From contig CAITHK010000153.1 in assembly GCA_903892175.1 (NCBI GenBank), positions 1 to 35,837 on the forward strand: a stretch of 35,837 nt of DNA, written 5' to 3'. Source of the DNA: an uncultured Burkholderiales bacterium (GTDB lineage: Bacteria; Pseudomonadota; Gammaproteobacteria; Burkholderiales; Burkholderiaceae_C). Below are positions 31,069 to 33,532 of this stretch, one piece after another. Each line of letters starts with the position of its first letter. Positions within the stretch are counted from its first letter, which is position 1. A model generated the notes under the pieces. The model was not told where the DNA came from, made no database searches, and saw nothing but the letters and a program-made list of their open reading frames with translations. A program made the translations under genes and the position numbers.

Positions 31069-31805
31069 TGCGCGTGTCTGAGCGCAGACTCCACGCCGCC
31101 ATCGTGGATCTGGACGGCACGATGGTCGACACCTTGGGCGACTTTGAGCAGGCGCTCAACCGCTGCTTGACCGACCTCGATTTGCCGCCGGTCACCCGCG
31201 CCTTGGTGGAACGCACGGTGGGCAAAGGGTCGGAGCATTTGATTCGCTCGGTGCTGGCCCACCAACTGGCTTTGCCTGACGTTGCAGCCTCGGGGCTGGT
31301 GTGTGCGGGCCGCGGTGTGGATGGTTTGTACGAACCCGCGTGGCTGCGTTACCAGCACCATTACCAACGCATCAACGGCCAATATGCCCAGGTGTATCCA
31401 GGTGTGGTGCAAGGTTTGCAGCAGATGCGTGATGCGGGTTGGGCTCTAGCGTGTTTGACCAACAAGCCGCTGGCGTTTGCCCAAAACCTTTTGGCAGCCA
31501 AGGGGCTGGACTGTTTTTTCACGCAGGTGTTTGGTGGCGACAGCTTTGCCACCAAGAAGCCCGACCCTTTGCCGTTGCTCAAAACCTGTGAGGCGCTGGG
31601 CAGCGTGCCTGAACGCACCTTGATGGTGGGAGACTCCAGCAACGACGCCCAAGCGGCACGTGCGGCGGGTTGTCCGGTGGTGTTGGTGCGCTACGGCTAC
31701 AACCATGGCCAGCCGGTGGAGTCGGTGGACGCCGATGGGTACTTGGACCAGATCGACCATGTGGGCGGCTGGCTGGCGCGCACCCAGTCGTCGGCTGCCT
31801 CATGA
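31068..31805 (+). CDS. gph: Phosphoglycolate phosphatase (HAD family)
   Basis: Gph removes phosphate from 2-phosphoglycolate arising from DNA repair or oxygenation. The 245-residue HAD hydrolase has the nucleophile motif VDLDGTMVDT (D14, D16), CLTNKP (motif II), KKPDPLPLL (motif III lysine) and MVGDSSNDAQAARAAG (motif IV acidic pair). The start ATG at 31068 overlaps the rpe stop; a TTG one codon earlier is unlikely. It is followed by the trp leader. HAD enzymes are hard to tell apart by sequence, but the rpe-gph-trpE context supports the call. Confidence 0.92.
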   Translation: MRVSERRLHAAIVDLDGTMVDTLGDFEQALNRCLTDLDLPPVTRALVERTVGKGSEHLIRSVLAHQLALPDVAASGLVCAGRGVDGLYEPAWLRYQHHYQRINGQYAQVYPGVVQGLQQMRDAGWALACLTNKPLAFAQNLLAAKGLDCFFTQVFGGDSFATKKPDPLPLLKTCEALGSVPERTLMVGDSSNDAQAARAAGCPVVLVRYGYNHGQPVESVDADGYLDQIDHVGGWLARTQSSAAS

Positions 31806-31810
31806 GCCTT

Positions 31811-31819
31811 TGTTAAACT
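31811..31819 (+). promoter_or_regulatory. Extended -10 element before the trp leader peptide
   Basis: TGTTAAACT (31811-31819) reads as TGn plus TAAACT, an extended -10. The leader ATG is seven bases further on, so transcription probably begins at or within a base of it. No clear -35 is seen inside the end of gph. GAG at 31820-31822 is too weak and close to be a good ribosome site. Confidence 0.45.
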
Positions 31820-31826
31820 GAGTCCT

Positions 31827-31910
31827 ATGTTCATTCACCGCAGCACTGTCACAGGTTGTCACGACCGGGGAGCCTGGCCCTGGCGTACGCCGAGTTCTGC
31901 GCGCATCTAA
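31827..31910 (+). CDS. trpL: trp operon leader peptide (27 residues, Trp-Pro-Trp)
   Basis: A short open frame from the ATG at 31827 to TAA at 31908-31910 encodes 27 residues, with tryptophan at positions 17 and 19 (codons 31875-31877 and 31881-31883) in the order Ala-Trp-Pro-Trp-Arg. Two Trp codons eight to ten codons before the stop, directly followed by alternative hairpins and a T-tract, and placed just upstream of trpE, are the hallmarks of a trp leader peptide. Ribosome stalling at these codons when charged tRNA-Trp is short would cover the following CGAGTT. The start appears leaderless. Confidence 0.8.
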   Translation: MFIHRSTVTGCHDRGAWPWRTPSSARI

Positions 31911-31938
31911 CTCGCACGCCTTGCGCCGTGCGTCGCGC
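31891..31938 (+). promoter_or_regulatory. trp attenuator: pause (1:2) and antiterminator (2:3) hairpins
   Basis: Segment 1:2 pairs CGAGTT (31891-31896) with AACTCG (31909-31914). The rival 2:3 structure pairs CGCACG (31913-31918) with CGTGCG (31927-31932) inside an outer stem GCGCG (31899-31903) with CGCGC (31934-31938). The outer stem uses bases 31937-31938 of the terminator's 5' arm, so 2:3 and the terminator exclude one another. A ribosome stalled on the Trp codons would mask 31891-31896 and favour 2:3. Confidence 0.65.
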
Positions 31939-31969
31939 TTCTCGGCAGCTTTGCCAGCAAGCACTTTTT
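31937..31969 (+). terminator. trp attenuator terminator hairpin (3:4) and T-tract
   Basis: GCTT (31937-31940) pairs with AAGC (31959-31962) around a 3x3 internal loop and an inner stem GGCA (31944-31947) with TGCC (31952-31955), loop GCTT. AC and five T (31965-31969) follow. The stem is modest in strength, as befits a regulated terminator ahead of trpE. Confidence 0.6.
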
Positions 31970-31976
31970 GAATGAA

Positions 31977-32009
31977 CGGCCCCACCTCTGCGGGGCTGGG
32001 CTGTGGAGG
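31977..32009 (+). promoter_or_regulatory. Hairpin and Shine-Dalgarno upstream of trpE
   Basis: After the attenuator, CGGCCCC (31977-31983) pairs with GGGGCTG (31992-31998), one G-U, loop of eight bases. It has no T-tract, so it is not a terminator. GGAGG (32005-32009) follows, eight bases before GTG 32018, and fixes the trpE start. The loop contains CCTC (31985-31988), which could pair with GAGG of the ribosome site; whether it does is unknown. Confidence 0.5.
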
Positions 32010-32017
32010 CTCAACCT

Positions 32018-33532
32018 GTGATCACTGAAAACGAATTCAACCAATTGGCCCAACAGGGCTACAACCGCATTCCGCTGATGGCGCAAGCGTTTGCGGATCT
32101 GGAAACCCCTTTGTCGCTGTACCTCAAGCTCGCCCATGTGCAGCAGCAGGGCGAGCGCAGCTTTTTGCTGGAGTCGGTGGTGGGCGGCGAGCGCTTTGGG
32201 CGCTTTAGCTTCATTGGCTTGCCCGCCCGCACCGTGTTGCGCGCCAGCGGTTTTGGCGCTGAGGCCAAGACCGAGGTGGTGACCGATGGCGTGGTGGTGG
32301 AAACCGACCACGGCAACCCGCTGGACTTTGTGTCTACTTACCAGCAACGCTTCAAGGTGGCCTTGCTCGATGGCTTGCCGCGTTTTTGCGGTGGCTTGGC
32401 GGGCTACTTTGGGTACGACACGGTGCGCCACATCGAAAAGAAACTGGCCGGATCGTGCCCGCCAGATGATTTGGGCATGCCCGACATCTTGCTGCTGCAA
32501 ACCGAGGAGTTGGCCGTGATCGACAACTTGTCGGGCAAGCTTTCGCTCATTGTGTATGCCGACCCGGCGCAGCCGGGTGCGTATGCCCAGGCCCGGGGGC
32601 GATTGGCTGAATTGAAGCAGCGCTTGAAAGCACCTGCCGTGGCTCCTTCGATTGCCCCGTGCGACAGCCACCCGGCGCAGCGCAGTTTTGCCAAAGACGA
32701 TTACCTGGAGGCGGTGGCGCGCGCCAAAGAGTTGATCGCGGCGGGTGACTTCATGCAGGTGCAGGTGGGGCAGCGCATTCACAAACAGTTCACCGCCAGC
32801 CCGTTGTCGTTGTACCGTGCGTTGCGTTCGCTCAATCCGAGCCCCTACATGTATTACTACAACCTGGGCGATGCCTATGTGGTGGGCGCATCACCCGAAA
32901 TTTTGGTGCGCCAAGAGTCCACGCCCGAAGGACAAAAGATCACCATCCGTCCCTTGGCAGGCACCCGTCCTCGCGGTGCTACGCCCGAGGCCGACAAGGC
33001 CGCTGAAGAGGAGTTGATCAATGACCCGAAAGAGCGAGCCGAGCACGTGATGTTGATTGACCTCGCGCGCAACGACATTGGACGCATCGCCAAGGTGGGG
33101 AGTGTCAAGGTGACCGAAGCCTTTGTGGTGGAGCGTTACAGCCATGTGATGCACATCGTGAGCAATGTGGAAGGGCTTTTGAGTGACGGCCCCAACGGGC
33201 AACCGTTGACCAGCATGGATGTGTTGCGCGCGACGTTCCCGGCGGGCACCTTGACCGGTGCGCCCAAGGTGCACGCGATGGAGTTGATCGACCAGTTGGA
33301 GCCCGTCAAACGCGGGCTGTACGGCGGTGCTTGCGGCTACTTGAGCTTTGCCGGCGACATGGATGTGGCGATCGCCATTCGCACCGGCATTGTGAAAAAC
33401 GACACCTTGTATGTGCAAGCCGCTGCGGGCGTGGTGGCCGATTCGGTGCCCGAGTTGGAGTGGCGGGAGACCGAGCACAAGGCGCGCGCCTTGTTGCGCG
33501 CCAGCGAGTTGGTGGAAGAAGGCTTGGAGTGA
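32018..33532 (+). CDS. trpE: Anthranilate synthase component I
   Basis: TrpE converts chorismate to anthranilate, the first step of tryptophan synthesis, with TrpG supplying ammonia. From the GTG at 32018 the product has 504 residues and begins [21 protein letters not shown], as in Burkholderiales TrpE. The GTG five codons upstream is not chosen because the GGAGG sits inside it. The N-terminal part has [29 protein letters not shown], including the LLES segment of the tryptophan feedback site. The catalytic part has [49 protein letters not shown] and [20 protein letters not shown]. Expression should be set by the attenuator upstream. Confidence 0.97.

What the first reader, a model, noticed from the sequence alone, without database searches (positions are those of the whole stretch)
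31811..32018. Complete trp attenuator with a probable leaderless leader peptide upstream of trpE
Seen: a 27-codon frame with two Trp codons (31875, 31881), hairpin 1:2 (31891-31914), competing 2:3 (31899-31938), terminator with T5 (31937-31969), then trpE. Geometry fits classical ribosome-mediated attenuation: a ribosome on the Trp codons masks segment 1, one at the TAA (31908) masks segment 2. An extended -10 lies seven bases before the leader ATG, so the mRNA may start at the AUG, as reported for the trp leader of Sinorhizobium meliloti, whose released leader RNA (rnTrpL) acts in trans. A similar small RNA of about 145 nt from this locus is an open possibility (inference).
Basis: partly seen in the sequence, partly recalled or inferred. 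Interest (0 to 1): 0.72.

Follow-up and report, generated by a model that had tools for sequence, protein, structure and literature searches.

The report
Trp leader whose 5' end refolds
Ahead of the tryptophan gene trpE in this bacterium and many relatives lies a tiny, strongly conserved reading frame with two tryptophan codons; the stop signal expected of a textbook attenuator is mostly missing, and instead the first letters of the messenger can pair with a spot just ahead of trpE, which hints at another way of sensing tryptophan.

Summary
The leader ORF is real: its Trp-X-Trp core stands in frame in 185 of 205 distinct trpE upstream regions. In the 184 used, a hairpin around the Trp codons holds (98.5% of cells) and a -10 lies 6-11 nt before the leader ATG in 167, as for a leaderless start. 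Not noticed before: the message's first ~10 nt (31828-31837) are complementary to 31969-31978, 40-49 nt before trpE, and this is kept by changes on both sides (variant 5' ends 24 of 159 own, 9.6 +/- 2.7 swapped; collapsed to 70 dissimilar loci 12 against 3.3 +/- 1.7). Best reading: ribosomes on a leaderless leader keep the 5' end from pairing near or at the trpE ribosome site. The helix is well supported; the switch is inference, folding does not predict trpE opening, and classical attenuation remains possible in the window's lineage.

The parts
31811..31819 (+). extended -10 element TGTTAAACT, 7 nt before the leader ATG
   Evidence: sequence; TA[CAG]ACT-type -10 6-11 nt before the leader ATG in 167 of 184 loci, TGn in 145; no start-site data
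31827..31910 (+). trpL leader ORF, 27 codons, MFIHRSTVTGCHDRGAWPWRTPSSARI*, probably leaderless
   Evidence: translation; core frame in 185 of 205 distinct trpE upstream regions
31828..31837 (+). 5'-end arm A (UGUUCAUUCA), complementary to 31969-31978
   Evidence: swap tests; RNAalifold consensus of 14 sequences. Not formed in the window's own full-length fold
31865..31883 (+). Trp-codon hairpin TrpH: CCGGGG (31865-31870) / CCCTGG (31878-31883), loop AGCCTGG holding Trp17; Trp19 in the 3' arm
   Evidence: 98.5% of cells paired in 184 loci, slid controls 32-66%, both-sided changes at one pair; further 65 loci 98.2%; codon bias at Arg14, Gly15, Pro18
31889..31894 (+). GCCGAG, possible lineage-specific antiterminator arm (partner 31941-31946)
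   Evidence: only WIN and L214 of 14; 31889-31946 folds at -25.5 kcal/mol
31914..31931 (+). hairpin P1 GCACG/CGTGC; its 3' arm could instead pair with GCAC 31961-31964
   Evidence: consensus fold of 14 sequences, few changes; alternative in 13 of 14
   Evidence: -9.1 kcal/mol; a hairpin ending just before the ACTTG-type tail is in the isolated fold of 9 of 14 sequences, WIN and L214 folding this stretch differently; RNAalifold does not include it
31965..31969 (+). T5 run; terminator tail at best in this lineage
   Evidence: in WIN, L214, L227; L226 intermediate; ACTTGTCC or ACCTGTCC in the other ten
31969..31978 (+). element A' (UGAAUGAACG), partner of the 5' end; core GAATGAAC 31970-31977
   Evidence: consensus fold
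31979..31996 (+). hairpin P3 GCCCC/GGGGC directly after A'
   Evidence: consensus fold of 14 sequences, no both-sided change
31998..32012 (+). small hairpin GGGCT/GGCTC around the trpE Shine-Dalgarno (GGAGG 32005-32009)
   Evidence: 29 of 184 loci have GGAGGCTC before trpE, and 29 of these 29 have G[AG]GC within 14 nt upstream, GAGC in 23 against 1.9 expected in shuffles; shared descent not corrected
   Evidence: translation; relatives

Best explanation
A leaderless tryptophan leader that, in most of its family, acts without an intrinsic terminator. Shown by comparison: the two Trp codons sit in a conserved hairpin, and the first 8-10 nt of the leader ORF are complementary to a site usually 50-77 nt before trpE (in some relatives on the trpE ribosome site itself), kept by changes on both sides. 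Likely from promoter spacing: the message begins at or within a few bases of the AUG. Inferred: when Trp is plentiful, ribosomes clear the leader, the free 5' end pairs with A', the leader is closed to new 70S ribosomes, and trpE initiation is held down (A' is a little-structured stretch of a GC-rich leader and could be a standby site for 30S). When Trp is scarce, a ribosome stalled at codon 17 or 19 with one queued behind covers nt ~4-62, the 5' end cannot pair, and trpE is translated. The Trp-codon hairpin may also pause RNA polymerase until the first ribosome arrives (inference).
For: Exact complement of 7 nt or more between the first 13 nt and the own leader-trpE gap: 55 of 184 loci against 22.1 +/- 3.7 swapped; loci with a non-consensus 5' end 16 of 128 against 6.2 +/- 2.3 (p 0.0002); direct, reversed and complement-only controls show no excess. 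Duplex-energy swap test z -6.7 for 5' end x gap, -4.4 for 5' end x trpE start region. 65 further loci: 34 against 20.3 +/- 2.5; variants 7 of 31 against 2.3 +/- 1.3, p 0.0028. All 249 loci in one register: 93 with at least 7 of 8 Watson-Crick pairs against 51.2 +/- 4.4 swapped; variants 24 of 159 against 9.6 +/- 2.7, maximum 17 in 200 swaps; both-sided changes at six of eight pairs. After collapsing loci with similar gaps (106 groups), 12 of 70 variants against 3.3 +/- 1.7, 0 of 5000 swaps as high. MF[IV]H-type leaders have it in 67 of 119. RNAalifold closes the leader with this helix, present in all 14 sequences. No terminator excess.
Against: Predicted accessibility of the trpE Shine-Dalgarno does not rise when ribosomes mask the leader (0.38 free, 0.39 one stalled, 0.33 stalled plus queued; 75 loci). 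A single stalled ribosome does not free A' either (0.31 to 0.26); only a stalled plus queued pair does (0.59), and that mask covers the 5' arm by construction; in the window A' hardly changes (0.66 to 0.62). In the window's own full-length fold the helix has probability near 0; a pairing of 31848-31858 with 32012-32022 is in the best fold. Only 93 of 249 loci have the helix by the strict count, RK-type leaders 2 of 45. In the 14 close sequences it never varies, so no covariation there. An unrelated upstream segment also shows own-partner excess (z -2.9), so part of the energy signal is composition. With at least 8 nt demanded the further variants give 1 against 0.7. Of the 7 further variant matches only three lie 44-50 nt before trpE; the others lie at -10 (two), -12 and -109; they come from five genera, all of them genera already in the first sample, and two share a genus with L125.
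Confidence: 0.4

Rival explanations
1. Classical ribosome-mediated transcription attenuation, with amended arms: P2 (or a longer stem ending at GCAC 31961-31964) plus T5 is the terminator; GCCGAG 31889-31894 with CTCGGC 31941-31946, extended by GCGCG/CGCGC, or hairpin P1, is the antiterminator; a ribosome at Trp17 leaves these free, one at the stop codon covers them.
For: Hairpin with T5 in the window; the antiterminator dominates the local fold and its stretch folds at -25.5 against -9.1 kcal/mol for the terminator stem; a two-way choice GCAC/GTGC/GCAC is present in 13 of 14 close sequences, and in 54 of 87 loci with A' against 37.6 expected in shuffles for 4 nt, 13 against 5.5 for 5 nt; terminators follow related leaders in 12 of 18 outgroup loci.
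Against: T run shared only with L214 and L227, strong antiterminator only with L214 of 14; 17 of 170 loci against 12 of 170 shuffled have a terminator-like site; mismatched stem; local fold z 0.17.
Confidence: 0.28
2. Rho-dependent attenuation: the long untranslated C-rich gap lets Rho terminate before trpE unless trpE is translated or the leader is folded otherwise.
For: Gap median 135 nt, C 38% against G 30% on average over 184 loci; no terminator excess; Seliverstov et al. suggest the same, as a weak prediction, for terminator-less cys leaders (PMC1262725, section 4 read).
Against: C excess is mild; rut-like stretches were not searched for; does not explain the 5'-end helix.
Confidence: 0.13
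3. The 5'-end helix protects the message from decay or limits the leader to one round of translation, and has little to do with Trp sensing.
For: It starts 1-2 nt from the predicted 5' end, which should hinder 5'-end-dependent decay and 70S loading (general knowledge).
Against: In L036, L041, L044, L271, L274 and L301 the best complement lies 6-12 nt before the trpE start, on or beside its ribosome site, which points to trpE translation.
Confidence: 0.13
4. The inverted repeat is a pair of DNA sites for a regulator rather than an RNA helix.
For: GTTCATTC and GAATGAAC are inverted copies about 140 bp apart.
Against: Partner-specific changes differ between loci; direct-orientation matches are not enriched; distance is variable.
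Confidence: 0.03

Closest known systems
trp operon attenuator of Escherichia coli (recalled)
   Same: short leader ORF with nearby Trp codons directly upstream of trpE; hairpin involving the Trp codons
   Different: no Shine-Dalgarno before the leader, Trp codons W-P-W at 17 and 19, no terminator excess across the family, conserved complementarity of the message 5' end with a site before trpE; Rfam models give no match
Sinorhizobium meliloti trpLE(G) leader, rnTrpL/peTrpL (PMC7298713, passages seen)
   Same: leader ORF read from an RNA that starts at its ATG
   Different: there the leader RNA ends at a terminator and acts in trans; here a terminator is not conserved and trans action is untested; peptides were not compared
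LEU element of actinobacterial leuA (PMC1262725, abstract and section 4 read)
   Same: leader ORF with regulatory codons and long-range pairing at or near the structural gene's ribosome site
   Different: there the codon run itself pairs with the Shine-Dalgarno; here the 5' end of the message pairs, usually 50-77 nt before the start
tisB mRNA standby site (PMC7708055, start of abstract seen in a search listing)
   Different: no amino-acid leader; toxin gene; only an analogy

Membership tests
classical ribosome-mediated trp attenuator | leader ORF with regulatory Trp codons before trp genes | tested here: met
   185 of 205 distinct upstream regions keep the core frame; translation itself not shown
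classical ribosome-mediated trp attenuator | intrinsic terminator before the first structural gene | tested here: not met
   family: 17 of 170 loci against 12 of 170 shuffled; outgroup 12 of 18. In the window itself a weak candidate exists
classical ribosome-mediated trp attenuator | antiterminator that excludes the terminator | tested here: inconclusive
   strong form in WIN and L214 only of 14; a 4-bp two-way choice in 13 of 14 and mildly enriched in 87 loci
classical ribosome-mediated trp attenuator | match to an Rfam leader model | tested here: not met
   no gathering-level hit in the window, none relevant at E up to 10 in 31700-32100
classical ribosome-mediated trp attenuator | expression responds to Trp through the leader | not testable with these tools
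   needs bench work
leaderless rnTrpL-type leader | transcription starts at the leader AUG | tested here: inconclusive
   promoter spacing fits in 167 of 184, no SD-like tetramer in 182 of 184; no 5'-end data
leaderless rnTrpL-type leader | terminated leader RNA acting in trans | not testable with these tools
   no RNA data; terminator not conserved
translational leader of LEU-element kind | regulatory codons pair with the structural gene's Shine-Dalgarno | tested here: inconclusive
   Trp core nearly invariant, so own and swapped partners do not differ (z 0.1)
standby-site control | unpaired site upstream of a sequestered ribosome site | tested here: inconclusive
   A' less paired than the gap as a whole in 72 of 75 loci, but A' is A+U-rich

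The most novel reading that the evidence does not exclude
Comamonadaceae-type bacteria sense Trp with a terminator-free, leaderless leader in which the very 5' end of the message is the regulatory arm: ribosome traffic on the leader decides whether the 5' end captures a site at or before the trpE ribosome site. It would be translational attenuation by 5'-end capture, derived from an ancestral transcription attenuator that related families still keep.
Probability: 0.31. Interest if true: 0.76.

Novelty: new variant of a known kind. Interest (0 to 1): 0.55.

Why it matters
Amino-acid leaders are usually filed as attenuators once regulatory codons and a hairpin are seen. Here a well-supported conserved helix is a different one, at a place the textbook model does not draw. 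If the 5' end of a leaderless mRNA is itself the switch, it links two odd features, leaderless starts and terminator loss, and gives a simple system for asking how 70S loading at a 5' end competes with RNA folding. It would also show a leader gene kept while its mode of control changed.

Tried and rejected
Window-by-window complementarity scan of leader against gap and trpE start: most values for the 5' end against -84 to -52 are 1-3, but the two highest single ones (3.5, 3.3) are the 5' end against -8 to -4, the trpE start; overall mean 0.6, sd 0.9. Pairing of the Trp core with the trpE Shine-Dalgarno: attractive by eye (GGGGAGCC/GGCTC) but untestable because the core hardly varies. Pairing of the stretch after the 5' arm with the trpE start: strong in the window, family-wide z -1.7, within controls. 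Column covariation inside the leader, 130 loci: the top pair looks like two clades, not a helix. A second small ORF starting in GAATGAAC: frames 26/12/8 of 46 and no shared peptide by eye. Peptide conservation as the sole cause of the core: rejected, since Arg14 is CGG in 166 of 168 Arg codons (10% in trpE) and Gly15 GGA in 160 of 178 (3% in trpE). Opening of the trpE SD by stalled ribosomes: not predicted. The control with segment -75 to -48 returned error values and is not used.

211 loci plus the window gave 205 distinct upstream regions, 185 with the core frame and 20 without; L122 dropped because its frame runs into trpE, leaving 184. Further set: 71 fetched, 69 new and distinct, 65 with the core; it was drawn from the rows that one search listed, which show the better TrpE matches, and comes from genera already sampled. 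Alignment A1 left out L217 of 15 prepared sequences. Outgroup of 18 was picked by hand; for L067 and L076 the best-scoring hit lies in the leader itself, not at a terminator; the 170 leave out L138 (TrpE identity under 60). Peptide groups misplace a few loci.

Full report
What was claimed. The sequence features named are at their coordinates. The question was which of them are more than chance.

The leader is real. Of 205 distinct upstream regions 185 hold an ORF with the Trp-X-Trp core in frame; a common form is MFIH...TG.SDRGAWPWRKP. Of the 20 without it I looked at 14: L002 is cut short, L033 has a frame break, L067 and L073 have another leader, L053 perhaps another, and nine show no recognisable leader. 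Upstream of the leader a TA[CAG]ACT-type -10 lies 6-11 nt before the ATG in 167 of 184, with TGn in 145; a Shine-Dalgarno-like tetramer precedes the leader ATG in 2 of 184 and trpE in 156 of 184. In 65 further loci the -10 is in 64 and the tetramer in 0. This fits a message that begins at the AUG; no 5'-end data were available.

A hairpin around the Trp codons. CCGGGG/CCCTGG (31865-31870/31878-31883) pairs in 98.5% of cells over 184 loci; sliding the partner drops this to 32-66%; the fourth pair is G-C, G-U, A-U, C-G, U-G or U-A in different loci, G-G in two. Codon choice shows selection on the RNA: Arg14 is CGG in 166 of 168 Arg codons (10.3% in trpE of 82 of these loci), Gly15 GGA in 160 of 178 (3.0%), Pro18 CCC in 153 of 166 and never CCG (52% in trpE). 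A pause hairpin or an internal ribosome-slowing site are possible roles (inference).

No terminator excess. A scan for a hairpin followed by U-rich sequence finds 17 of 170 Comamonadaceae-type loci and 12 of 170 shuffled controls, against 12 of 18 (shuffled 1 of 18) in a hand-picked outgroup of Burkholderia, Massilia, Alcaligenaceae and similar records (in two of the 12 the hit is in the leader itself). A stricter scan gives 12 of 123 MFIH-type and other loci, shuffled 2.8% per locus, a small excess. In the window's genus (61 genomes searched, 50 with TrpE), 14 close sequences were aligned; the T run is in three and intermediate in a fourth. A hairpin ending just before that tail is in the isolated fold of 9 of 14. 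A weaker two-way choice, GCAC/GTGC/GCAC, is in 13 of 14, and mildly enriched in 87 loci (54 against 37.6 at 4 nt, 13 against 5.5 at 5 nt). So a classical attenuator is possible for this lineage, and a hairpin choice may exist more widely, without a shared terminator.

The 5'-end helix. The common start AUGUUCAUUC is the reverse complement of a recurrent GAAUGAAC before trpE. Among 56 loci with GTTCATTC at the start, 26 have exact GAATGAAC in the gap; shuffled gaps have it in 0.07%. The stronger test uses loci whose 5' letters differ. With the same search applied to own and swapped partners, exact matches of 7 nt or more occur in 16 of 128 own against 6.2 +/- 2.3 swapped (p 0.0002), and no excess is seen for direct, reversed or merely complementary matches (a looser score agrees, 14.49 against 13.32 +/- 0.19). 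Loci fetched afterwards gave 7 of 31 against 2.3 +/- 1.3, p 0.0028; at 8 nt or more there was no signal, 1 against 0.7. These are new species of genera already sampled, and only three of the seven matches lie in the usual place. In one register over all 249 loci, 93 have at least 7 of 8 pairs (51.2 +/- 4.4 swapped), variants 24 of 159 (9.6 +/- 2.7). With similar gaps collapsed to 106 groups, 12 of 70 variants stand against 3.3 +/- 1.7, none of 5000 swaps as high. Both-sided changes are at six of eight pairs, among them U9-A to C-G in 11 loci, C6-G to U-A and U8-A to A-U in 3 each; some single matches will be chance, as the swapped counts show. Examples are L015 GTTTATCC/GGATAAAC, L131 GTTCAAT/ATTGAAC, L137 GTTTATTC/GAATAAAC and L306 with 11 nt. 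Among the 93, searched from -112 to -30, the median place is 62 nt before trpE, quartiles 77 and 51. MF[IV]H-type leaders have it in 67 of 119, RK-type leaders in 2 of 45, the rest in 25 of 85 (that split counts 94 in all, one more than because the two scripts bound the search slightly differently). RNAalifold on 14 close sequences closes the leader with this helix, followed without a gap by hairpin P3 and by a small hairpin around the trpE Shine-Dalgarno, though no pair there has changed on both sides. In L036, L041, L044, L271, L274 and L301 the complement lies 6-12 nt before trpE, and 5' end against trpE start region is the second strongest swap signal (z -4.4).

What it may do. The leader up to the Trp codons has room for one stalled and one queued ribosome (arithmetic on ~28-nt footprints, general knowledge), which together would cover the 5' arm. 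Masked that way A' becomes more accessible in prediction (0.31 to 0.59, 75 loci), as it must when its partner is covered; one stalled ribosome alone does not do it (0.26), and the trpE Shine-Dalgarno opens in neither case (0.38, 0.39, 0.33). So the helix is supported and the switch is inferred. In the window's own fold another pairing (31848-31858 with 32012-32022) takes the place of the helix.

Known or not. Nine literature searches in an open-access library listed no title or abstract start that describes a trp leader of this family or such a helix; only named Comamonadaceae (0 papers), Burkholderiales or Burkholderia. The comparative study of proteobacterial attenuators by Vitreschak and colleagues is recalled, not seen, and may cover related leaders. 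Nearest in kind are the S. meliloti leaderless trp leader (passages), the LEU element (abstract and section 4) and, by analogy, tisB standby control (abstract start). Verdict: new variant of a known kind.

Noticed in passing
window 31850-31858 and 32012-32020: CACAGGTTG and CAACCTGTG are perfect complements: the leader could cover the trpE start codon directly. In the window's best fold, weak family-wide (z -1.7).
   Followed up: partly
window 31914-31918, 31927-31931, 31961-31964: GCAC, GTGC, GCAC: the middle copy can pair with either side, a two-way choice in 13 of 14 close sequences.
   Followed up: partly
L067, L072, L073, L076, L077, upstream of trpE: Leaders with other Trp motifs (for example AWWRWWRLSVG in L067) and, by sequence in L067 and L073, a plain terminator.
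   Followed up: partly
L228-L241, upstream of trpE: A second clade of the window's own genus has leaders like MFIHLNTLTGCNDRGAWPWRRQ with a gap of roughly 80-125 nt and, by eye, mostly no clear A' element; L236 has TGGATAAA against TTTATCCA.
   Followed up: partly
L124 and L146, upstream of trpE: A TTTGCTACACTT-type promoter box remains but no leader ORF is recognisable.
   Followed up: no
L003 and L225, upstream of trpE: trpE appears to follow another open frame directly, with no leader.
   Followed up: no
L213 (G000:C135:10002-10018, minus strand): Second, one-mismatch copy of the Trp core pattern in the window's own genome.
   Followed up: no
RK-type loci such as L173, L189, L196: Leaders such as MFITRKHIKGSNDRGAWPWRR keep the Trp hairpin but have the 5'-end partner in only 2 of 45 and a terminator-like site in 1 of the 34 grouped so.
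   Followed up: partly
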